A stretch of 64,000 nucleotides of DNA from Lebetimonas natsushimae (GTDB lineage Bacteria; Campylobacterota; Campylobacteria; Campylobacterales; Nautiliaceae): contig NZ_BDME01000001.1 in assembly GCF_002335445.1 (NCBI RefSeq), forward strand, positions 682,001-746,000, in the 5' to 3' direction. Numbering within the stretch: position 1 is the first letter of the stretch; every line of letters begins with the position of its first letter. Below, one piece after another: positions 26,349 through 39,428 of this stretch. Under the pieces are notes generated by a model that saw nothing but the letters and a program-made list of their open reading frames with translations, was not told the origin of the DNA and ran no database searches. A program made the translations under genes and the position numbers.

Positions 26349-26979
26349 GGGAATTGGGGCAGGGCTTGTGGAAGAATATTTAAATAGGGGTGATGAAGTT
26401 TATGGGATAGGAAGAAGCTGCCCTTTTGATATTCCTTTTTATAAGATTGATTTAACAAATATTGAAAATTTATATAAAGCAATTGATTCATTTGATATAA
26501 ATTTTGATTTGGCAGTCCTAAATGCCGGAATTTTAGGGGAGATTAAGTTACTTAAAGAATGGAGCGTAAAAGAATTACAGGATATTTTTATGGTAAATGT
26601 CTGGAGTAATAAAGTTTTAGTTGATTTATTAGATGGCAAAGTAAAGAAAATTGTAATAATGAGCAGCGGAGCAGCTGTAAACGGAAATCCGGGCTGGGGA
26701 GGATATGCCCTTAGTAAATGTGCGGTTAATATGATGGTAAGTATTTATTCAAAGGAGATTAATACTCCAATTTTTGCAGTGGCTCCCGGAGTAATTGATA
26801 CTGATATGGTAAGAAAAGTAATTTCGGCTGACAGGGGAAAATTCAGCTCAGTTGTAAGAGTTGATAAAAGCAGGGTTGAATTAGAAATAGGAGTTGAAAG
26901 GCTTGTTAAACTTTTTGATAATCTTGATAAATTTGAAAGCGGTTCTTTTATAGATATAAGAAATGTCGAATTTATTTAA
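26320..26979 (+). CDS. Short-chain dehydrogenase/reductase
   Basis: This 219-residue classical SDR has an N-terminal cofactor motif ITGISRGIGAGL (TGxxxGxG), NAGILGE in the middle of the Rossmann fold, a Ser in IMSSGAA and the catalytic YALSK (YxxxK), then the VAPGVIDTDMV segment. Nucleotide preference and substrate are unknown. It sits between the protease and flavoprotein genes with overlaps of 29 and 17 bases, so all three share one transcript. Confidence 0.88.
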   Translation: MKVLITGISRGIGAGLVEEYLNRGDEVYGIGRSCPFDIPFYKIDLTNIENLYKAIDSFDINFDLAVLNAGILGEIKLLKEWSVKELQDIFMVNVWSNKVLVDLLDGKVKKIVIMSSGAAVNGNPGWGGYALSKCAVNMMVSIYSKEINTPIFAVAPGVIDTDMVRKVISADRGKFSSVVRVDKSRVELEIGVERLVKLFDNLDKFESGSFIDIRNVEFI

Positions 26980-28114
26980 TACAATTATTTTAGGGGGAGG
27001 TGCCAGCGGGCTTTTTTTAGGGAGTCTGCTAAGAAAAAATTATTTAATAATTGAACATAATAAGGAAATCGGGGCTAAAATAAAAGTTAGTGGCGGCGGA
27101 AAGTGTAATATCACAAATAAAATTGTAAGCGAAAATAATTACAGAGGCGATAAAGAGTTAGTAAAAAAAACATTAAACAGATTTTCAAATAAAAATTTGT
27201 TAAATTGGCTTAAAAATAATAATTTAGAAGTAATTGAAGCTAAAAAGAATCAATATTTTTTTAAAAGTTCTGAAGTTTTAGTGAGTTTTTTTAAAAGAAA
27301 TGTAAAGAATATATATAAAGCTAAAATTGTTGAAGTCAAGTTTGAAAATGATAAATTTAAAGTTGTAACCGATAAAAAAATTTTTTATGCAAAAAACGTG
27401 GTCGTGGCTACCGGCGGAATTAGTTTTAGAAAACTGGGAGCCAGTGATATTGGGTATAGGATAGCTGAGAGTTTTTCTCATTCAATTATACCTCCTCGCC
27501 CGTCACTTGTAAGGTTTACTGTTCAAAGGAGTGAAAGCTGGTTTAAAAATTTAAGCGGGGTTGGTTTTGGGGCTGAGGTTAGTGTAGGTGATAAAAAATT
27601 TAAGCAAAATATTCTTTTTTCCCACAAAGGTATAACAGGACCGGCAATACTTAATGCGTCTTTATGGTGGGATAAAGGAAAGATTATAATTAATTTTTTA
27701 AAAAAAGATGTTTTTTCTTATTTTAAAAATCCAAATAAACAAATCTCAACCCAGCTTCCTCTTCCAAAAAGATTTGTTAAAGAGTTTTTAATTTCACAAA
27801 ATCTCAAAGATAAAAAAATAAAAGAGCTAAAACCCTCAGAAAAAGAAAAATTAAGGTTATTGAATAGTTATGAATTTGCACCGGCAGGAACTTTTGGATT
27901 AGAGAGGGCCGAGGTTACAAAAGGCGGGGTTAATACAAATGAGCTAAGTGTTTTTTTAGAAAGTAAATTTCAAAAAGGACTTTATTTTGCAGGTGAAGTT
28001 GTTGATATAACGGGTGAGCTTGGAGGGTATAATTTTCAGTGGGCATTTAGCTCTGCTTATAGTGTATATTTAGGTATAATTTCGCTCAAAAAAGGCGAAA
28101 ATGAAACATATTGA
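26963..28114 (+). CDS. BaiN/HI0933-family FAD-dependent oxidoreductase
   Basis: This 383-residue flavoprotein begins with the FAD dinucleotide motif LGGGASGLFLG. It carries the family-specific GAKIKVSGGGKCNITN, VVATGGISFRKLGASDIGYRIAE and a C-terminal GLYFAGEVVDITGELGGYNFQWAFSSAY. Members are called NAD(P)/FAD-dependent oxidoreductases or BaiN-like and mostly lack a proven substrate. The gene overlaps the next gene, the predicted SMC partner, by 14 bases. Confidence 0.88.
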   Translation: MSNLFNTIILGGGASGLFLGSLLRKNYLIIEHNKEIGAKIKVSGGGKCNITNKIVSENNYRGDKELVKKTLNRFSNKNLLNWLKNNNLEVIEAKKNQYFFKSSEVLVSFFKRNVKNIYKAKIVEVKFENDKFKVVTDKKIFYAKNVVVATGGISFRKLGASDIGYRIAESFSHSIIPPRPSLVRFTVQRSESWFKNLSGVGFGAEVSVGDKKFKQNILFSHKGITGPAILNASLWWDKGKIIINFLKKDVFSYFKNPNKQISTQLPLPKRFVKEFLISQNLKDKKIKELKPSEKEKLRLLNSYEFAPAGTFGLERAEVTKGGVNTNELSVFLESKFQKGLYFAGEVVDITGELGGYNFQWAFSSAYSVYLGIISLKKGENETY

Positions 28115-29150
28115 ACTGCTTAATTTAATATGTAAACACAGAAAAATAATTGATTTAGCCTATAAACAGAAAAAACTCCTCTCAGTTCCAGAGCCTCTTG
28201 TAGAAATTGGCCTTTTTAATAAAATCGGGGGATTTTATTATATTAATGAAATTTATTTAAATTTTGTAGACACCCTGCTTAGCCGTGCGGATTTAAGCTA
28301 TATTGCAGAAGATTTTGAAAAAGAGTTTAGGAAACTCCTTGAATATAAAAATGAATATCAGTTTAAAAAAACTTCGGTGCTTTATGATTTGATAATTTCA
28401 CTTGTCACAAAAATTTATCAGGGAATGAAAAACAGGGATAAAAGGGTTTTGGCTTTAATTGAAAATTTTGAAAAAGATGAAGAGTCCAATCTTGATTTTT
28501 TAATAAATGAAGCTAAAAAAATTTTACTTGATATTGAAGAAATTATGCAAAAAAATGAAACTATTTATAATCTGTTTGAAGAGTTTTTGAAATTTCAAGA
28601 GTTTGAAAATTTAATAAAAGATATTTTGGTTGATATTACCGCTTTGAATCAAAATATTGATTCATACCTTAAAAGACTCAGAGAATTTATAACCCAGACT
28701 GAGAAAAAAAGAAGATTTAATCAAAAACTTTTTAAAATTGCCAATATGATATTAAATGAAGATGTTAAAATTGATAATTTCCTTACAACCAAAAAATTTG
28801 TAAATAAACAAAAAATAGAGGTCTTTCCTGACAGTGCATATATGGATTATGAAAAGGCAGTTAAAGTTATAGGAAAATTTACAAAAGAAAAAAAAGTAAA
28901 AAAATCAAAAGTCAAAAAAGATATAAAAGAGGTAATAGAACTTATCAATTTAAAGCAGCTGCTTGAATATATAAAAGGCAGCGATGATATATTCAAAAGT
29001 ATTATTGAATATCTGCCAAGGATTGACAGGGAGCTTATTAATGAAAGTGTAAGGGTTTTTGTTTATATACTTAACCATTATGACAGGGAAATTGAATATA
29101 AAAAAGGGTATAATGAATATAATGTAAGGATTGTTAAATGGAAAGCATAG
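28101..29150 (+). CDS. Predicted kleisin-like / MksF-type subunit of an SMC-like complex
   Basis: This 349-residue, mostly helical protein has no membrane segment. The N-terminus looks like a winged-helix unit (LLNLICKHRKIIDLAYKQK, then KIGGFYYI). The centre is long helices including DITALNQNIDSYLKRLREF and TEKKRRFNQKLFKIANMIL. A charged Lys-rich linker lies near residue 265-275 and a C-terminal folded part ends the protein. This architecture and the order (this gene, a small partner, a large SMC-like ATPase) match MksF/JetA in MksBEF and Wadjet systems. I infer the role mainly from gene order; the sequence alone is not diagnostic. It overlaps the following gene by 13 bases. Confidence 0.45.
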   Translation: MKHIELLNLICKHRKIIDLAYKQKKLLSVPEPLVEIGLFNKIGGFYYINEIYLNFVDTLLSRADLSYIAEDFEKEFRKLLEYKNEYQFKKTSVLYDLIISLVTKIYQGMKNRDKRVLALIENFEKDEESNLDFLINEAKKILLDIEEIMQKNETIYNLFEEFLKFQEFENLIKDILVDITALNQNIDSYLKRLREFITQTEKKRRFNQKLFKIANMILNEDVKIDNFLTTKKFVNKQKIEVFPDSAYMDYEKAVKVIGKFTKEKKVKKSKVKKDIKEVIELINLKQLLEYIKGSDDIFKSIIEYLPRIDRELINESVRVFVYILNHYDREIEYKKGYNEYNVRIVKWKA

Positions 29151-29653
29151 TGTTTGATGTTTTAAGCAAAGGAATAATTGTTTCTACCAATTCGTCTAAA
29201 TATAAAGAAGTAGCTGCATATCTGCTAGATGAAGAAAATTTTCATAATTTTAATTCATTGGTATCAAAACTTGGATTTTATCTGGTGGGGGAAAACGGAT
29301 ATTTTTATTTATCAAAAGAGTTAAATTCTACTGAAGAAGAAAAATTTTTTAATTCTCATAAGCAGATAATTTTGGCAATTGCCCAGTTAAAAAAAGTATT
29401 CATTCATTTAGATAAAGGGCATAAAATTAAAAAAAGTGAATTTATAAAAAGATTTGATTCTAAAAAGGATGAAAAAATTATAAAAGCGCTTTTTGATAAA
29501 AATGATTTAATGGAAATCACAGATAAACTTTTTAATATGTTGGAGAAAAATTTTGTGCTTGAATCAAAAAGTACTGATGAATATGTGGTTTTAAATTCAA
29601 TTAATTATTATCTTGATATTGTAAATTCTATAAGCGAGGTAGGTGATGAATAA
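29138..29653 (+). CDS. Predicted MksE/JetB-type small subunit of an SMC-like complex
   Basis: This 171-residue soluble protein appears to hold tandem winged-helix elements: SKGIIVSTNSSKYKEVAAYLLDEE, KLGFYLVGENGYFYLSKE, then a helical middle and NKLFNMLEKNFVLESKSTDEYVVLNS. MksE, MukE and JetB proteins are about 170-220 residues long, with two winged helices, and sit between the kleisin and SMC genes, as here. The gene overlaps its neighbours by 13 and 8 bases, so the three proteins are probably made together. Assignment is from size, context and fold impression. Confidence 0.5.
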   Translation: MESIVFDVLSKGIIVSTNSSKYKEVAAYLLDEENFHNFNSLVSKLGFYLVGENGYFYLSKELNSTEEEKFFNSHKQIILAIAQLKKVFIHLDKGHKIKKSEFIKRFDSKKDEKIIKALFDKNDLMEITDKLFNMLEKNFVLESKSTDEYVVLNSINYYLDIVNSISEVGDE

Positions 29654-32600
29654 AATATATTTTTTTAATGCGGCTAATTTTAATTTTGCCGAGATTGATT
29701 TAAAAAAGAAAAATGTATTTTTTGTAGGAGATAACGGAAGCGGTAAAACCACGGCAATCAGGGCAATTCATTATTATTACAATTCAGATATGAAAGCTTT
29801 GGGAATTGACCCAAATAAAGAGAGTTTTAAAGATTTTTATTTCAAATATGACAATTCTTTTATTGTGTATGAATTTGATGATTATTTTGTATTGATGTAT
29901 AAAAGAAGAGGTGAGATTAAAAAAAGGTTCAGCCATCAAAAATTTGATATAAACCGTGTTTTAAAAGGTGATGAAATAGTCCCTCTTGAAGAAGTGATAA
30001 ATTATGCAAAAGAGGCTGGAAGTTATATGCCTCAAACTAACGATGAATTTAAAAAAATTATTTATGGACTTGATAGAAGGCATCTTGATTTTAAACTGAC
30101 TTCAATTAAAAATTATAATACGTTTATAAACCTTTATAATAAAATATTTAATGTAAATAAAGCCGTATTTGATGCTAAAAGTATAAAAGAGACTATTTTT
30201 ACTACACTTGATAGAATAGAAGCCGGTGAGATTGAATATGAGGATTTTTTAGAAAGAGTTAATAATTTCAGGCAATATTTTATTTTTTATAAATCTTTTA
30301 AATTGCAAGAAAGTAATATTGAAAAATTGTACTTGCTAAAAAATGATTTAATAAAGCTCCAGGAAGAAATAAATGATTTAATTAAAAAAATTTCATATAA
30401 AAAAGAGATTGAAGAAAAAGAAGTAGATAAAATAATTGAAAAAATAGGTTTACTAGAAAAAAGAAAAAGAAATCTAAATAAAATAATCGGACTTTTGGAT
30501 AAAAAAATAAAAAATTATATAAACTGTTTTGATAAAGAGATATTAAAATTAAACTCTCAACTAGAGGAGATTAATAAATTAAAAGAAAAATTTTCTTTAG
30601 AAAAACTTCAAAAAGTTGAAAATAAAGTAAATAAAAAAGAGGAGATTAATTCAAAGCTGATTATATTTAAAACCTCTTTAAATGAGTTAATGAAAGGTAT
30701 AAAATCCCAGGTAGATGAAATAGAAGAAGCTATTAATAGACTTAAAAGAGAAATAAGAATTTTAAAAGAAGAGATAAAAGCAGAGGAAATAAGACTCAAA
30801 AGAAATTTGGAAGAAATGTATCAGCAAAAAATAGAAGAAAAAAATGAAGAATTTATAAAAAGAGAAAAAGAATTAATAGAAAATATAGAAAAATTGGAAA
30901 AAGAAACTGAAAATTTTGTAGAAAAAAGAAATGTTTATCAAAAAGAGCTAAACGATGTTTCATTTAAGTACAGGGAAATTGAAAATGATTTAAAAAAAGA
31001 ATTTGAAAACAGATTTAATGAGTTAAATAACGAAATTAAAAATTTAAAAAGAGAAAAAGAAAATTTAGAAGATGAAAATTATAAATTAAAAAGAATTCTT
31101 AAAAAATTAAAAGATGAATTAAATGAAAATATTGAAAAGACAGAAATTTATTATAAAAAAGAATTAAGTGAAATTGATAAAAAAATAACCTTTTATCAAA
31201 ATATTTTAAAAACAAAACCAAATTCGTTTAAAGAATTTTTAGCTCAAAATGTGGAAAACTGGGAAGAAGAACTTTACCCTGTAATTGATGAGAATCTGCT
31301 TAATATGGATATAAACGAGCTAAAACCAAAAGTTGTAAGTGAAAGAATTTTTGGAATTGAATTAAATAAAGCTGTTTTGAAATCTATTCCCACAATGAAA
31401 GAAGCCGAAGAAGAAATAGAAAAGCTTAATGATCTAAAGACTGCTTTAAATGAAGAAAAAATTCAAAAAATAAATATCTTAAAAAAAGATTATGAATCAA
31501 AAGAAATTGAAATTACTTCGCAAATTGAGGTTAATAATGAAAAAATAAAAGAGATTGAAGAAAAAATAGAACTTCTTGAAAATGAAAAAAATGAATTAAA
31601 TAAAAAATTACAAAAAGATTTAGAAAAATTAAAAAATAAAAAAAATGAAGAAGAAAAACTTATAAAAATAAATATTTCAAAAACTGAAGCTGTTATTAAA
31701 GATTTGAGAGATAAAATTGAAAATATCCGAAGAGAGATAAAAAGAAATAAAAAAGAGTTAGAAAATATTAAAAAAGAACTTTTAAAACAAAAAGAAAAAG
31801 AATTTATTGAAAAAAAAGAGATATTAAAAAAAGAATACAAAGAAAAAGAGAAGTTGAAAAATGAAAAAATTAATGAGCTTACTCAAAAAAAAGAAAAAAT
31901 TTCAAAAGATGAAAGAATAATTGAACTCCAAAAAGAGATAGAAAATTTAAAAAATAAACTAAAAGAAATAGAAAAAGCTGAATATTTCTTAAGAGAATAT
32001 AATGAAAAAAAAGAATTTATTGAAAAATTGCCTGTTATTAAAGAAAATATAGGAAAATTTGAGACTTACAAACAGAGAATTAATCAAACTTATGAAAAAC
32101 TATATAAAAAATTAAATAATAAAATAAACAAAACTGAAATAAATATAAATGAATTGAATAAAAAACTTGAAATAATAAAAGAGGGATTAAAAAAAGTATC
32201 CGGCTTAAATTTAAGTGATGAAAAAATAGAAACTAATGAATATTTAAGCAATTTGGTTGATGAATATAAATTAAAAGATGGCGAATTTAGGGATAAGAAA
32301 CTCAGTTTTAAAGAAGTTGCAAGTAAAATTAAAACTGCGCTTAATAGATTTGCAATAACCGGACTAGAAGTCAATTTTAATATAGAAAAACTCTCAGACT
32401 TAATCAAAGACGAGCTTGAAAAAGTGGACGAGCTTTATTTATTTAAAAATAAAAAATTTGAAGTATTGAATAAAACGAGATTAAAAGAACTTAAAAACCT
32501 TTTAGGAGGACTTCTTGAAAAAAGACTTGATAATTTTGAAAGAAGTAAGGAAGATTTTATAAATCAGGTAAGAAGAATCAATCAGAATCTCTCAAAAGTA

Positions 32601-33197
32601 AATTTTGGAATAATCAGAAATATAAAAATTGAATTGGAAGAAAATAAAAAAAGTGTTTTAAAAATTTTTGAGAATATAAAAAAAGATATTGATGAATTAT
32701 TAGAATTTTTAGCGGAAGAATCGTTGTTTTTTGATAATATTATGAGTGAAAGAAAACTCAAAAAAATTGAAGAAGCATTTAATACAATTAAAAAAGAGAT
32801 AAATAAAGAGAGTTTTTCATTAATAGATGTTGTTGATATTAATGTCAAATTTATTGAAAATGAAAAAGAAAACACCCTGAAAGTCATTAAAAATGAAAGT
32901 TCTACCGGTGGTAGTATTCTCCTAAAAATTGCAATTGCCGTAAGTTTGCTTGAACTGTTTATAAAAGAAAAAGCGGATTTATTTTTGATCTTAGACGAGG
33001 TCAGTGTACTTTCTACCAAAAATCAAAAACTGCTTAAAGAATATGTAAACGAAAGAGGACTAGGGGTGATTTATGTAACGCCTGATTTGCCTCTTGTGGA
33101 TGTAGAGGGAATTGATATTTATAAATTCAGAAATATTGGCGGTGAATTTGAGGTAGTAAAACTTATAGCAGATGATGGGATAAAAATTGAAAATTAA
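29646..33197 (+). CDS. SMC/MksB-like coiled-coil ATPase
   Basis: The product is about 1183 residues long and has SMC architecture. The N-terminal head has Walker A GDNGSGKTTAIRAI (near residue 28-41). A Lys/Glu-rich coiled coil runs from about 230 to 530. A central globular region with NVENWEEELYPVIDENLL and FGIELNKAVLKSIP follows at about 530-610. A second coiled coil reaches about 960. The C-terminal head has the signature-like SSTGGSILLKIAIAVS (near 1085) and Walker B LFLILDEVSVLS (near 1112-1123). No CxxC zinc hook is present, which argues against Rad50/SbcC. Start: ATG 29646 is preferred to the adjacent GTG 29643. It likely forms a DNA-loop-extruding or DNA-clamping complex with the two upstream products; chromosome organisation or plasmid defence are both possible. 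Confidence 0.8.
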   Translation: MNKIYFFNAANFNFAEIDLKKKNVFFVGDNGSGKTTAIRAIHYYYNSDMKALGIDPNKESFKDFYFKYDNSFIVYEFDDYFVLMYKRRGEIKKRFSHQKFDINRVLKGDEIVPLEEVINYAKEAGSYMPQTNDEFKKIIYGLDRRHLDFKLTSIKNYNTFINLYNKIFNVNKAVFDAKSIKETIFTTLDRIEAGEIEYEDFLERVNNFRQYFIFYKSFKLQESNIEKLYLLKNDLIKLQEEINDLIKKISYKKEIEEKEVDKIIEKIGLLEKRKRNLNKIIGLLDKKIKNYINCFDKEILKLNSQLEEINKLKEKFSLEKLQKVENKVNKKEEINSKLIIFKTSLNELMKGIKSQVDEIEEAINRLKREIRILKEEIKAEEIRLKRNLEEMYQQKIEEKNEEFIKREKELIENIEKLEKETENFVEKRNVYQKELNDVSFKYREIENDLKKEFENRFNELNNEIKNLKREKENLEDENYKLKRILKKLKDELNENIEKTEIYYKKELSEIDKKITFYQNILKTKPNSFKEFLAQNVENWEEELYPVIDENLLNMDINELKPKVVSERIFGIELNKAVLKSIPTMKEAEEEIEKLNDLKTALNEEKIQKINILKKDYESKEIEITSQIEVNNEKIKEIEEKIELLENEKNELNKKLQKDLEKLKNKKNEEEKLIKINISKTEAVIKDLRDKIENIRREIKRNKKELENIKKELLKQKEKEFIEKKEILKKEYKEKEKLKNEKINELTQKKEKISKDERIIELQKEIENLKNKLKEIEKAEYFLREYNEKKEFIEKLPVIKENIGKFETYKQRINQTYEKLYKKLNNKINKTEININELNKKLEIIKEGLKKVSGLNLSDEKIETNEYLSNLVDEYKLKDGEFRDKKLSFKEVASKIKTALNRFAITGLEVNFNIEKLSDLIKDELEKVDELYLFKNKKFEVLNKTRLKELKNLLGGLLEKRLDNFERSKEDFINQVRRINQNLSKVNFGIIRNIKIELEENKKSVLKIFENIKKDIDELLEFLAEESLFFDNIMSERKLKKIEEAFNTIKKEINKESFSLIDVVDINVKFIENEKENTLKVIKNESSTGGSILLKIAIAVSLLELFIKEKADLFLILDEVSVLSTKNQKLLKEYVNERGLGVIYVTPDLPLVDVEGIDIYKFRNIGGEFEVVKLIADDGIKIEN

Positions 33198-33957
33198 AGA
33201 TGCTTTGAAATTAAAAAATGGAGATTATATTTTAGAAAAAATACTAAATAAAGATAAAGTCTGGCTTTTTTTAAATGATGATAAAAAGATCCCAAAAGAG
33301 TTTTTTGAAATATATGAGAAAGTAGAAAGCGGATATCCTATTGAATATATTTTTAATGAAGTTTATTTTTACGGAGATAAATTTTTCATAAAAGAGGGCG
33401 TTTTAATTCCAAGAGATGATACTGAGGTTGTGGTTGAAAGGGCGATAAAATTAATTAATAAATTGAAAATTGAAAATGGAAAATTAAAGGTAATAGACTG
33501 TTGCACAGGAAGCGGGGTAATTGCAATTGAAATTGCAAAACACACAAATGCTACAGTAATAGCTACTGATATAAATGAAATTGCCCTTGAAGTTGCCAAA
33601 AAGAATGCAAAGCTGCATAATGTAGAGGCTGAATTTAAAAAATGCGATTTATTTAATGAATGTGCCGATGTTTTGATTGCAAATCCCCCTTATGTAGAAA
33701 TTACTCATAAAAAGCCAAATGACTACGAGCCGGACGAAGCGTTTTACGGGGGAGTTGACGGGCTTGATATAGTTAAAAAAATTATTTTAAAAGCAAAAAA
33801 AATGAATTTTAAAGCTTTGGTTTTGGAAATTGGCTATAATCAACAATTATTATTAACAAAATTTTTAAAAGAACAAAATATTAATAATTTTGAATTTTTT
33901 AAAGATCTGGCAGGAAATATAAGGGGAGTAGAAATTATTTTAGATGAAAATAGTTAG
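33187..33957 (+). CDS. prmC: Peptide chain release factor N5-glutamine methyltransferase
   Basis: This 256-residue enzyme has motif I VIDCCTGSGVIAIEIA and the catalytic NPPY in VLIANPPYVEI, preceded by the N-terminal helical domain with YIFNEVYFYGDKFFI and GVLIPRDDTE. It methylates the GGQ glutamine of release factors 1 and 2. Start: TTG 33187, overlapping the SMC-like gene by 11 bases. Odd feature: a copy of the AATTGAAAATGGAAAATT repeat lies in frame at 33459-33487, giving KLKIENGKLK just before motif I. Its 3' end overlaps the convergent marC by 23 bases. Confidence 0.92.
   Translation: MKIKDALKLKNGDYILEKILNKDKVWLFLNDDKKIPKEFFEIYEKVESGYPIEYIFNEVYFYGDKFFIKEGVLIPRDDTEVVVERAIKLINKLKIENGKLKVIDCCTGSGVIAIEIAKHTNATVIATDINEIALEVAKKNAKLHNVEAEFKKCDLFNECADVLIANPPYVEITHKKPNDYEPDEAFYGGVDGLDIVKKIILKAKKMNFKALVLEIGYNQQLLLTKFLKEQNINNFEFFKDLAGNIRGVEIILDENS
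33459..33487 (+). repeat. Dispersed AT-rich repeat inside prmC, copy 3
   Basis: AATTGAAAATTGAAAATGG and GGAAAATTAAAGG units matching the intergenic repeats lie in frame in prmC, encoding a short Lys/Glu/Asn segment between the N-terminal domain and methyltransferase motif I. Confidence 0.55.
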
Positions 33958-34824: not shown

Positions 34825-37578
34825 ATGGATATTAATAAACTCCTTAATTCCAAAGGGAGACTTTTAACTGAAATTTATTTTGAACTCCAAAAATATTATG
34901 ATGAAATTTATCCAAACGCTGTTGTTTTAATGGAGGTAGGGACGTTTTTTGAAACATATGAGGCTGAAGGTATAGGGAAAGCTAGAGAAATTGCAAATGT
35001 TTTAAATATTCAGCTTACCAAAAAAAACAAATCCATTCCCGAAATTGATAAAAAAAATCCTTTAATGGCCGGATTTCCCAATCATGCACTTGATAGGTAT
35101 CTTGAAAAACTGATTGATGAAAATAAATACACGCTAATTCTCATAAAACAAAAAGGTACTCCTCCAAATGTAAAAAGATATCTATCAGAAATAATATCCC
35201 CGGGGGTTAATCTTGAATATTCTAAAACATACGAAAATTATGTAACTTCAATAATTATAGAAAAATATTCAGCTTATCATGTGGGGTTTGCAAATATTGA
35301 TGTAAATACGGGAAAAAGTTATATTTATGAAAATTACTCCACAAAAGATGACCCAAGTTTTGCCTTGGATGAATTATTTAGACTTTTGCAGACCTATAGA
35401 TCAAATGAAATTATTTTAACTCTTAAAAATGTTGACTGCGATGAAATAGTAAATTATCTGGAACTTAGCGGAAAAAATATAATTATCAACAGAGCAAGAA
35501 TGAATATAAATTACCAAAATGAAATTTTTAAAAATGTTTACAATATTAATTCTCTTCTAAGCCCCATTGAAATCATGAATTTGGAAAAATACCCTCTAAT
35601 TACAGAAGCTCTTGGAATTTTACTTGAATTTGTAATAGCCCATAATAATGAACTTATTAAACATATTCAACTGCCGGTTTTAATAGAAGATGAAAATTTT
35701 GTATATCTAGGTAACAATCCTATAAAACAGCTTGAAATTGATAAAGTTTTAAAACTTATAGATAAAACAAAAACTCCAATGGGGAAAAGGTTAATAAAAG
35801 AAAGACTTTATAATCCTATAAAAGACGAAGAAGAGCTTAATAAAAGATATAAAGCTGTAAGTTTTATGCTAAACAGATATCACGAATTTGAAGAACTGCT
35901 CAAAAATATTTATGATTTGGAAAAAATCGACAGAAAAATAAAATTAAAACGTCTTCATCCTTTTGAACTTAATTTTTTGGTAAGTTCTTTGAAATCTTGC
36001 AGTGATATATATTTAAAACTTAAAAAAAGAACAACTAAGATTGATAATTATTTAAATTATATAGAGCGTCAATTTGATTTGGAAAAGGTAAATGTAAAAC
36101 TTGAAGATATTAAAGAAAGTTTTTTTAAAGACGGGGTTGATAAAGAATTAGATGAGCTTAATAATGAAAAAAAATATTATGTTAATCAACTTTTAAAATT
36201 AAAAGAAAATATAGAAAGCTTAGGGGATGTAAAGGTAGAAATCAATAAATTGGAAAAAGAGGGGTTTTATTTATCTCTTACAAAAAACAGATTTAATTTA
36301 ATTAAAGATAAATTTTTAAACAGTTTTTTAGAAATTGATAATAAAACACTGTTTTTTAAAGATTTGAAAATAAAAAATTTAACAAACAGTGTAAAGATTA
36401 CAGGAGAAATTATAGATGAAATCAGTGATAAAATTTTGGCACTTGAAAATAAAATTATTAAAAAAACTTTTAAGCTGTATTTAAAAACTTTAAATGAAAT
36501 GAATCGGGAATTTGATATTTTAAATAATCTATCAAATGAAATTGCCAAAATTGATGTGGCTGTGAGCAGTGCAAAAATTGCTAAAAAATTTAATTATTTT
36601 AAACCTAAAATTTCCAATAAAAGAGCAGTCTTTAAAGATTTACGTCATCCGTTAATAGAAATTAACCAGGAAAACGGGATATATGTACCAAATAATATTG
36701 ATTTTAATGAATATGACGGAATGCTTTTATATGGAATAAACAGTTCTGGTAAAAGCTCACTTATGAAAAGTGTCGGAATTGCTCTCTTTTTGGCTCAGAG
36801 TGGATTTTTTGTTCCGGCTGAAATGGAGTATAAACCGGTTGACGGCATTTTTACAAGGATTGAAGCAAAAGATAATCTTTCAAAAGGGCTCTCAACATTT
36901 GCCGTTGAAATGCTTGAACTTAAAAATATTTTTAACAGAGCTACAAGTAATTCTGTTGTTTTAGGGGATGAAATAGCTCATGGAACTGAAACCCTCTCAG
37001 CCCTTAGTATTGTAGCAAGTGCAGTAGTGAAACTTGCTAAAAGGAAAATAAATTTTCTTTTTGCCACACATCTTCATCAATTAATGGATTTAGATGAAAT
37101 TAAATTTCTGCCGAATGTAGTTGCTAAACATCTTGAAGTTCATTTTGACGGAGAAAAACTTATTTATGATAGGAAATTAAAAGATGGAAGTGGAAGTAGT
37201 GTATATGGTTTAGAATTTGCAAAATCTATTTATATGGATAAGGAGTTTTTGGAAACTGCTGAAAGTATAAGAAAAAAATTAAATAAAGAATATACTGAAT
37301 TTGAACTGTTAATTAAAAAGAAAAAAAGCAGATATAATAAAAATTTAATAGTTACAACCTGTGCAATATGTGGAAAGCCTGTTGATGATGTCCATCATAT
37401 TATCCCTCAGGAAAACGCAAAAGACGGGTTTGTAGGGCATATTCCAATTCATCATAAATATAATCTTATACCACTTTGTAAAAAGCATCATAAAATGGTA
37501 CATGAAGGTAAAATCAGAATTACCGGATTTGTGACTACTTCAAAAGGAATTGAATTACATTGGGAAGAAGAGACTTAA
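34825..37578 (+). CDS. MutS homologue with C-terminal HNH endonuclease domain (MutS7-like)
   Basis: The 917-residue protein has a MutS mismatch-recognition start with [11 protein letters not shown] (residues 36-46, equivalent to the GxFYE motif). Connector and lever regions follow. The ATPase has Walker [17 protein letters not shown] near 635-650, then [20 protein letters not shown] and Walker [13 protein letters not shown] near 710-720, plus FATHLHQL. After the ATPase, residues 846-893 form an HNH nuclease: [27 protein letters not shown]. This fusion marks the MutS7-type lineage known from some Campylobacterota, Bacteroidetes, giant viruses and octocoral mitochondria. It could combine mismatch recognition and strand nicking without MutL. 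Its stop overlaps the convergent gene by four bases. Confidence 0.92.
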
Positions 37579-39428
37579 GAGTTTAGAATTTCTACAGCTT
37601 TAAGCATAAGAAGTCCTGCCTCATTTACGCTGTTTCTTCCCAAATATTTAGCTTCTCTGGCTGCAATATAAGCTTTATCGAAACTTTCTTTGCTGAGGCC
37701 AGATTTTTTAACAGCTTCTTTTATATTTTCAGGGAGGATTCTAACTTTTTTCTCTTTTACATACATACTACCAGTTTCTGCGATAGCTTTTACAACTCTA
37801 TAAATTGTTGGATTGATTGGTGCCCCAAAACCTTCTGGAACTCCACTCATAGCCTCATCCATCATTTTTCCGTATTCTGTTTCAACAATGTGCCCATCAG
37901 GCAATACTTCTAAAAACCCTTTTGATTCAAGTTTGTCAACTGCTTCAAATATTCTTGTTCTTTCTTCTTCATCTTTTCCTGCCAAAATATCCTCACATGA
38001 AATTCCAGTATCCGGAATCATTTTAAAAATATCCATTTCATATCTTGTCATAAATGGTAATTTTTTATGAGTTGCAATTTCTTCATACATAAGCCCTGAT
38101 TTAGTTGGCTCATATGTTCCTAAAATTCTCTCTTTTCTAGCTTCTTCTACCCATTCTCTGTTTGGTGCTGAGAAAACTTTATTTGAAATAGCAAGTGTTT
38201 TTACAGACCAGCTGTGAATTGCTCTTTCGTCTTTTTGGTCTTCAATTACTTTTTTGCCGTCTTCTGTTACAAAATATACTGCTTTTCCTTTTTCATCCAC
38301 ACCTTCGGTAATTAATCCAAAAGCTTCAAGTGAATACAGATATTCTCTTAAATTAAAATTATCATCAAACCATTTTTTCTTATCTTCTAAATCAGAGAAT
38401 TTTTTAGCAATTTCTTGTTTTTTCTTAGGCATTTCATCAAGTCTTCTGCCATATTTTTCAATAAGTTTTTTATATTCTTTAATTTTTCTTTCTATTAATT
38501 CTGCTCTAATTTCTTCAAATGTAGGTGTTTCTTCCGGATTGTTAGGTACTTTCTCATCCCAGATTTTTTGAATGGTTTTTAGAGTTTCAATTTCTTCTTG
38601 TTCAATAGCAAATGTTTTTAGAGGTTTGTCTGTTTTATCTCTATAGATTCTATAAACATCAAGAGCTTTTTCCCCAGCTTTTGTTAGTTCATCTACATTT
38701 GTTACATATCCAAGAGTTTCGAGGTTGGCCAAAGAGTCTAATTCAATTTCTTCTCCGTCAGCCACCTTTGCAATATCTTCTAAAATTGACAAATCAAGAA
38801 CACTTCCTTCATTTGCCCAACCTCCGTAAGTTAATGTTTCTTTTACAGCCTGACCTAGTTCTGTAAAAGTAAAATATTCTCCCACAGGAATTGAATATGC
38901 AATTAATCTCATTGCTTCTAGTAAATCTTTGTTATTTCCTTCAATTGCTAAATAATGTGCATCGGTTGGTCCCATTGGAGATTTTCTGATGTAATCTGCC
39001 AATTTAGCATCTATTACTAATTCTGGACTTATTATTTTATACGCTTCATATAAATCAAGTGCTTCCTGAGTAAGTTCGCCGTTTTTAGCAAATCCTCTTT
39101 TTTCAAGTTCCGTATTTGTAATTTTAGTAGTTTTATTTTTATTTTTTGCAGCTGCATCAATCATTGCAATAACTTCGCTGCTGACCCATTTAAATTCATC
39201 TTTCCATTCATCTATTGATTGGATTTTGTCTTTTACCCTGTTTAAAACGTTGGCAATAATTTCCCCTCCATAAGTAAATTCCGCAACAGCCGGCATTGGA
39301 AATCTTATAATTCCGCTTAAAGTCAATTCTTCGACTGCTTCATTGTTAAGTGCTTCTGTTTTAATTGTTTTTGTGTCTGAATTTAATAACTCTAATATTA
39401 TCTTTGCTGCTTCTTTTTTAATTACCAT
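37575..39428 (-). CDS. DUF505-like protein with repeated winged-helix-like units
   Basis: This 617-residue acidic and soluble protein has no membrane segment. Its composition suggests a series of winged-helix-like modules: similar elements recur, such as [20 protein letters not shown] (near 110-130) and [21 protein letters not shown] (near 235-256), with further [18 protein letters not shown]-type hairpins. It also contains a charged helical stretch rich in Lys/Glu near 310-350. I believe it belongs to DUF505, a family of archaea and thermophilic bacteria with no known function; this is from memory and is moderately sure. GAGGAGG gives a very strong ribosome binding site, which suggests high expression. 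It is monocistronic and convergent with MutS. Confidence 0.6.

What the first reader, a model, noticed from the sequence alone, without database searches (positions are those of the whole stretch)
28101..33197. Three-gene SMC-like complex (MksFEB/Wadjet-like) inside a housekeeping operon, with no JetD-type nuclease
Seen: a 349-residue helical protein, a 171-residue winged-helix-like protein and an SMC-architecture ATPase of about 1183 residues with Walker A, signature and Walker B motifs, overlapping head to tail. Known: MksBEF and Wadjet (JetABC) share this order and size pattern; Wadjet adds JetD, a TOPRIM-type nuclease, to cut plasmids. Inferred: this is an SMC complex lacking an adjacent nuclease, so it is either a chromosome organiser or a defence system with a distant effector. 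It is fused by overlaps to a flavoprotein gene upstream and prmC downstream, not set in a defence island.
Basis: partly seen in the sequence, partly recalled or inferred. Interest (0 to 1): 0.72.

Follow-up and report, generated by a model that had tools for sequence, protein, structure and literature searches.

The report
DNA-looping motor without its nuclease
A vent bacterium carries the three-part DNA-looping motor of a plasmid-cutting defence system but no cutting subunit anywhere in its genome; relatives suggest the cutter was dropped more than once while the motor stayed under strong selection, so the motor probably does a job of its own.

Summary
Three overlapping genes (28101-33197) encode a probable MksF kleisin (349 aa), an MksE-family protein (171 aa, Pfam over cut-off) and an SMC ATPase (1183 aa, DUF3584, no zinc hook), coupled to a flavoprotein gene and prmC. 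No JetD exists in this 1.64-Mb genome by three profiles. Relatives explain it. Of 21 Nautiliaceae genomes 10 carry mksFEB: three with a short, Topo VIA-like JetD (246 aa) between mksB and prmC, one with WD40 and metallophosphoesterase genes there, six (window included) with no adjacent JetD. A same-genus genome has a clean empty site. In other Campylobacterota the short JetD usually precedes mksF; a Sulfurovum-type clade lacks it too. JetD-less copies are under purifying selection (dN/dS at most 0.18) as strong as JetD-bearing ones. ScpA and ScpB are missing, so this is the genome's only recognisable SMC complex, yet close relatives do without it. Best reading: a divergent Wadjet/MksBEFG lineage that repeatedly shed its nuclease and persists as an MksBEF-like accessory condensin (motor activity and function inferred, not shown). 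Nuclease-less MksBEF is already known in Pseudomonas; new are the lineage, the short JetD and the within-family series of states at one site.

The parts
28101..29150 (+). mksF: probable MukF/MksF/JetA-type kleisin, 349 aa
   Evidence: ORF; conserved with mksE/mksB in 25 aligned Campylobacterota sequences; AlphaFold2 model pLDDT 74.5 with winged-helix-like ends around a helical bundle; best Foldseek hits are MukF chains (E 1.6e-3) with JetA also listed. No Pfam/NCBIfam hit.
29138..29653 (+). mksE: MksE-family KITE protein, 171 aa
   Evidence: Pfam PF21980 MksE, E 6.8e-14, 53 bits against cut-off 27; alignment A2.
29646..33197 (+). mksB: SMC-type ATPase, 1183 aa (an in-frame GTG lies one codon upstream at 29643)
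   Evidence: Pfam DUF3584 E 4.3e-17; full-length alignment A1; only one cysteine, so no CxxC zinc hook.
29727..29753 (+). Walker A of MksB, GDNGSGKTT
   Evidence: translation; core invariant in A1
31215..31412 (+). conserved non-coiled stretch mid-protein (KPNSFKEFL...IPTMKEAEEEIE), probable mini-hinge of MksB
   Evidence: conserved island between the two coiled-coil arms in A1; the hinge assignment is inference
32895..32915 (+). ABC signature of MksB, ESSTGGS
32979..32999 (+). Walker B of MksB, LFLILDE
33187..33197 (+). mksB/prmC overlap: the slot that holds a short jetD in G039, G085 and G300 and is empty here
   Evidence: junction comparison
26963..28114 (+). upstream flavoprotein (HI0933/TIGR00275 family); context, not part of the complex
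   Evidence: in same-genus G223 it abuts prmC directly
33187..33957 (+). prmC, release-factor glutamine methyltransferase; context
   Evidence: TIGR03534 over cut-off

Best explanation
The locus encodes a divergent, Campylobacterota-type MksBEF/JetABC complex that has lost its JetD nuclease. Shown: the three subunits, the absence of JetD genome-wide, a JetD-type gene in the homologous slot of relatives, purifying selection on nuclease-less copies, absence of ScpA and ScpB. Inferred: MksB dimers held by the MksF kleisin with MksE (KITE) use ATP to entrap DNA and extrude loops; without JetD an encounter with circular DNA ends in compaction rather than cutting, so the complex works as an accessory MksBEF-type condensin on the chromosome (and perhaps on plasmids). 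It is dispensable, because close relatives have neither it nor SMC-ScpAB.
For: Family assignment. No JetD in the 100%-complete genome by PF09983, by the lineage's own JetD profile, or by DUF7281, while the lineage profiles score E 1e-76 to 1e-120 for full-length copies in JetD-bearing relatives. Adjacent short JetD in G039, G085, G300, and upstream of mksF in four other families; its model matches Topo VIA/Spo11 and it keeps the Glu and DxD TOPRIM motifs. JetD-less copies: dN/dS 0.04-0.13 (G302/G308) and 0.00-0.15 (close Sulfurovum-type pairs), against 0.03-0.21 for JetD-bearing pairs. Conserved motor residues are kept after JetD loss. Asymmetry: all 11 genomes with a clear short JetD among 298 carry mks genes, whereas mksFEB without JetD is common. 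ScpA 0 of 24 and ScpB 0 of 121 over cut-off; no other SMC-size frame in the genome. Precedent: P. [quoted passage not shown]
Against: No functional data. Patchy presence (10 of 21 Nautiliaceae; absent from the same-genus genome) is more typical of defence than of a condensin, and there is no sign that a nuclease-contacting surface has decayed, though that test has little power. Relatives' operons carry nested defence genes. MksF has no sequence-level match to known kleisins and its structure match is weak.
Confidence: 0.55

Rival explanations
1. It is still a defence system: a JetABC sensor that restricts plasmids without cutting (by extrusion and compaction, as proposed for Smc5/6), or that recruits an unrelated host nuclease.
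For: Patchy distribution with clean empty sites; variable slot between mksB and prmC filled by JetD, McrBC plus JetD, or WD40 plus metallophosphoesterase; helicase and methylase genes inserted inside the operon of Sulfurimonas relatives; conserved residues unchanged after JetD loss; G288 has its JetD on a different contig, so trans arrangements may occur.
Against: No JetD-type gene in the window's genome by three profiles; no consistent replacement gene next to the JetD-less copies in either JetD-less group.
Confidence: 0.3
2. A decaying remnant of a Wadjet-type system that has lost its nuclease and is on its way out.
For: Absence of the cluster in G223, G027, G038, G305, G307; G288 keeps only the last codons of jetD upstream of mksF; G176 has a truncated mksB.
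Against: Intact frames in all Nautiliaceae copies that are not cut by a contig end; dN/dS 0.04-0.13 between two JetD-less genomes at 82% MksB identity, not far from neighbouring prmC 0.07 and mutS 0.06; the window copy lies 0.72 changes per site from its nearest JetD-less relative and is still intact.
Confidence: 0.1
3. Not an SMC complex of this kind: the ATPase is SbcC/Rad50 or RecN and the small genes are unrelated.
For: NCBIfam gives only weak, below-cut-off SMC and TrlF matches.
Against: MksE match over cut-off beside a DUF3584 ATPase, fixed three-gene order in about 30 genomes, one cysteine in the ATPase so no zinc hook, 1183 aa where all other SMC_N-like frames of the genome are at most 744 aa.
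Confidence: 0.03

Closest known systems
MksBEF of Pseudomonas aeruginosa (nuclease-less; chromosome organisation)
   Same: Three genes for kleisin, KITE and SMC ATPase, no nuclease; presumed origin from JetABCD by JetD loss (PMC10586767).
   Different: There it coexists with SMC-ScpAB (PMC7485682); here ScpA and ScpB were not found. The subunits are only distantly related: MksE matches Pfam MksE, MksF has no sequence-level match.
Wadjet / JetABCD / MksBEFG (anti-plasmid)
   Same: Same three core subunits; relatives in the same family carry a JetD-type TOPRIM gene in the operon.
   Different: No JetD in this genome; where present in this lineage JetD is ~250 aa instead of ~390 aa and sits either before mksF or after mksB; PADLOC's JetA/JetB models do not match and JetC matches only weakly.
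MukBEF of E. coli
   Same: The kleisin model's best structural neighbours are MukF chains; same subunit logic.
   Different: MukBEF is a main condensin of its hosts; this one is accessory and patchy, and the sequences are not close.
Three-gene mksFEB relatives on Bacteroidota plasmids (Persicobacter pPP3, L137)
   Same: MksB profile match 279 bits and MksE 60 bits, three genes in the same order, no JetD profile match nearby.
   Different: The presumed MksF is barely detected by profile comparison (hhalign probability 21%); 1230-aa ATPase; encoded on large plasmids.

Membership tests
MksBEF (MukBEF-like SMC complex) | SMC-type ATPase with Walker A, signature and Walker B on a long coiled-coil protein of the MukB/DUF3584 group | tested here: met
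   PF12128 over cut-off; motifs conserved across homologues
MksBEF (MukBEF-like SMC complex) | MksE-type KITE subunit | tested here: met
   PF21980 53 bits, cut-off 27
MksBEF (MukBEF-like SMC complex) | MksF kleisin with winged-helix ends | tested here: inconclusive
   No sequence match; AlphaFold2 model of moderate confidence whose best Foldseek hits are MukF, none below E 0.001
MksBEF (MukBEF-like SMC complex) | three genes in order F-E-B in one operon | tested here: met
   overlapping ORFs; same order throughout relatives
MksBEF (MukBEF-like SMC complex) | chromosome organisation activity | not testable with these tools
   needs Hi-C, imaging or biochemistry
Wadjet (JetABCD / MksBEFG) | JetD/MksG TOPRIM nuclease encoded with the complex | tested here: not met
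   absent from locus and whole genome; present in relatives G039, G085, G300
Wadjet (JetABCD / MksBEFG) | JetA/JetB/JetC recognised by defence-system models | tested here: not met
   PADLOC: no JetA or JetB match; JetC2 at E 6.6e-4 over a coiled-coil stretch only
Wadjet (JetABCD / MksBEFG) | restriction of small circular plasmids | not testable with these tools
   needs transformation assays
SMC-ScpAB | ScpA kleisin and ScpB KITE encoded | tested here: not met
   ScpA 0 of 24 genomes including this one; ScpB none over cut-off in 121
SbcC/Rad50 | CxxC zinc hook at mid coiled coil | tested here: not met
   a single cysteine, at residue 294 of 1183

The most novel reading that the evidence does not exclude
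In Campylobacterota that have no SMC-ScpAB, a plasmid-cutting Wadjet lineage has repeatedly shed its nuclease and been turned into the cell's only SMC complex: a natural series (no complex, motor only, motor plus JetD, motor plus other genes) at one chromosomal site that captures the defence-to-condensin transition proposed for MksBEF and MukBEF.
Probability: 0.35. Interest if true: 0.72.

Novelty: new variant of a known kind. Interest (0 to 1): 0.48.

Why it matters
A review proposes that MksBEF, and perhaps MukBEF, arose from plasmid-cutting Wadjet systems (PMC10586767), but in the known cases that step is deep in the past. Here JetD-bearing, JetD-less and empty versions of one operon sit at the same chromosomal site in one bacterial family, so the order of events and the function of the motor without the nuclease become directly testable. 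It also points to a bacterial group with no detectable SMC-ScpAB and, in about half the genomes of this family, no SMC complex found at all, and it adds a short (~250 aa) JetD that present defence-system models barely detect.

Tried and rejected
Distant JetD in the window's genome: the only lineage-profile hit is E 0.2 over 28 positions with two stop codons, rejected as noise. SbcC/Rad50 or RecN identity rejected: size, one cysteine, MksE neighbour. Decay of a JetD-contacting surface in JetD-less copies: no site in F, E or B is kept in the Nautiliaceae JetD-bearing copies and changed in all or all but one of the JetD-less ones, but label permutations also give about zero, so the test has little power. 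Sequence searches of the PDB with MksF, MksE, MksB and short-JetD profiles gave no convincing relative, only helical or coiled-coil chance hits. Viral contigs gave no relative of MksB by this search. A replacement effector common to the JetD-less copies was looked for in flanks of both JetD-less groups and not seen. The 2011 MksBEF paper is not in the library. Promoter and terminator scans gave no excess over shuffles.

Full report
What is there. Three genes overlap head to tail at 28101-33197 on the + strand: 349 aa, 171 aa and 1183 aa (the listed ORF starts at GTG 29643; the next codon is ATG, where homologues begin). The middle protein is a member of Pfam MksE (PF21980, 53 bits, cut-off 27); the long one matches DUF3584 (61 bits, cut-off 31), with Walker A, signature and Walker B conserved among ten homologues, and it has one cysteine only, so no Rad50 hook. 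The first protein matches no family by sequence; its predicted structure (pLDDT 74.5) has winged-helix-like ends round a helical bundle and its best structural neighbours are MukF chains, with JetA lower in the list, though none is below E 0.001. I take it as the kleisin mainly from operon position and size, with the structure as support.

Operon context. Upstream is a TIGR00275 flavoprotein, downstream prmC, both overlapping. In G223, a genome of the same genus, SDR, flavoprotein and prmC are contiguous with no mks genes, a clean empty site. G038 and G307 have SDR next to prmC, G305 M48 next to prmC, and G027 has one different gene (a solute-binding protein, opposite strand) between SDR and prmC. 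So in all but one Nautiliaceae genome where flanks are available the cluster occupies one precise interval, and its presence or absence keeps a tight junction with prmC.

JetD. Pfam JetD_C finds nothing in the genome. A profile built from the lineage's own short JetDs finds only an E 0.2 fragment with two stops and, with 16 rows, nothing; DUF7281, the other Pfam family these proteins match, finds nothing. The genome is estimated 100% complete in 8 contigs. Positive controls are strong: full-length short JetDs in relatives score E 1e-76 to 1e-120 with these profiles.

Relatives in the family. Of 21 Nautiliaceae genomes 10 carry mksB. Between mksB and prmC there is a short JetD in G085; McrB, McrC and short JetD in G039; short JetD running to the contig end in G300; a WD40 repeat protein plus metallophosphoesterase in G004; nothing in the window, G301, G302, G308 and G309. 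G311 carries mksFEB elsewhere, without JetD. The MksB tree mixes the states: the window groups with JetD-less G302/G308 (95/94), JetD-less G004 groups with JetD-bearing G039/G300 (96/91), and the order of the deeper branches is open. A tree of three flanking genes is broadly compatible with vertical descent and repeated loss of the cluster, though several of its forks are weak. JetD at the same slot in G085 and in G039/G300 makes one ancestral presence with at least two losses the simplest history; later gain by recombination is not excluded.

Relatives outside the family. In five genomes of four other families (G014, G104, G220, G237, G278; the last cut by the contig end) and in most Sulfurimonas-type genomes the short JetD lies immediately upstream of mksF. 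A well-supported clade of nine Sulfurovum-type sequences has mksFEB (or mksB where F and E were not recovered) with no JetD found next to it, commonly between maf and an aminotransferase/PBP1 gene pair; a genome-wide search of eight of its members found none, with the caveat that these are metagenome-assembled genomes. In two Sulfurimonas-type loci a helicase/PLD-nuclease protein and an Eco57I-type methylase sit between jetD and mksF. G288 keeps only the last codons of jetD in front of mksF but has a full-length jetD on another contig. Across 298 phylum genomes every clear short JetD (11 of 11) is in a genome with mks genes; by the Pfam MksE model alone it is 10 of 11 (Fisher p 7e-14, relatedness not corrected), and the eleventh, G176, proved to have jetD-mksF-mksE and a truncated mksB.

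Selection. Pairs of JetD-less copies have dN/dS of 0.04-0.13 (G302/G308), 0.00-0.15 (close Sulfurovum-type pairs) and 0.03-0.18 (a distant pair); JetD-bearing pairs 0.03-0.21; prmC and mutS of G302/G308 0.07 and 0.06. Synonymous sites are saturated in several distant pairs, so the close pairs carry the argument. The window's own copy has no close enough JetD-less partner for this test. The motor is therefore maintained without JetD in its nearest JetD-less relatives, and by its intact state presumably here.

Is it the only SMC complex? ScpA was found in none of 24 genomes and ScpB in none of 121 above cut-off, with good positive controls; the SMC_N profile finds no other frame of SMC size in this genome. 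But G223 and G027, which have no mksFEB, show no SMC-size SMC_N frame either, so it cannot be essential for this group.

Mechanism. Established for the family: JetABC entraps and extrudes DNA, JetD cuts (PMC10586767, PMC10123090). P. aeruginosa MksBEF, without JetD, contributes to chromosome organisation and likely arose from JetABCD by JetD loss (PMC10586767). I infer the same for this locus at about 0.55. The defence-without-JetD rival stays at about 0.3 because the cluster is patchy and nested with defence genes in relatives. Tests that would separate them are listed under next steps.

Known and new. A nuclease-less MksBEF is known. New here, as far as the searched library shows, are a divergent Campylobacterota lineage that PADLOC does not call, a short JetD, and one chromosomal site where empty, motor-only, motor-plus-JetD and motor-plus-other-gene states coexist within a family.

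Noticed in passing
34825-37578: MutS (domains I, III, V) with a C-terminal HNH nuclease domain (PF13391), resembling the MutS7 type known (from memory) in epsilonproteobacteria and octocoral mitochondria; it lies near prmC in the Nautiliaceae loci whose flanks reach that far.
   Followed up: partly
L038 13061-17514: WD40 repeat protein (838 aa) and metallophosphoesterase (646 aa) in the mksB-prmC slot of G004, a possible alternative effector pair for the same SMC complex.
   Followed up: partly
L107 1386-8375 and L094 1235-8383: SNF2-type helicase/PLD-nuclease protein plus Eco57I-type methylase inserted between short jetD and mksF in Sulfurimonas-type genomes.
   Followed up: partly
L034 3600-3760 and L071 8911-9696: In G288 the jetD next to mksF is reduced to its last codons, while a full-length jetD lies on another contig.
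   Followed up: yes
L137 5732-11195; L138; L136: Bacteroidota plasmids (Persicobacter pPP3, JZB09 plasmid 2, Bacteroides finegoldii plasmid 5) carry MksE/MksB relatives; no match to the short-JetD profile was found in their flanks.
   Followed up: partly
L025 13219-14094; L026 3941-4831: A second Campylobacterota subtype with ~1230-aa MksB and a ~290-aa DUF7281 protein directly downstream, a further JetD variant.
   Followed up: partly
37575-39428 (-): DUF505 protein (761 bits) of unknown function, conserved beside mutS in the same-genus genome G223.
   Followed up: no
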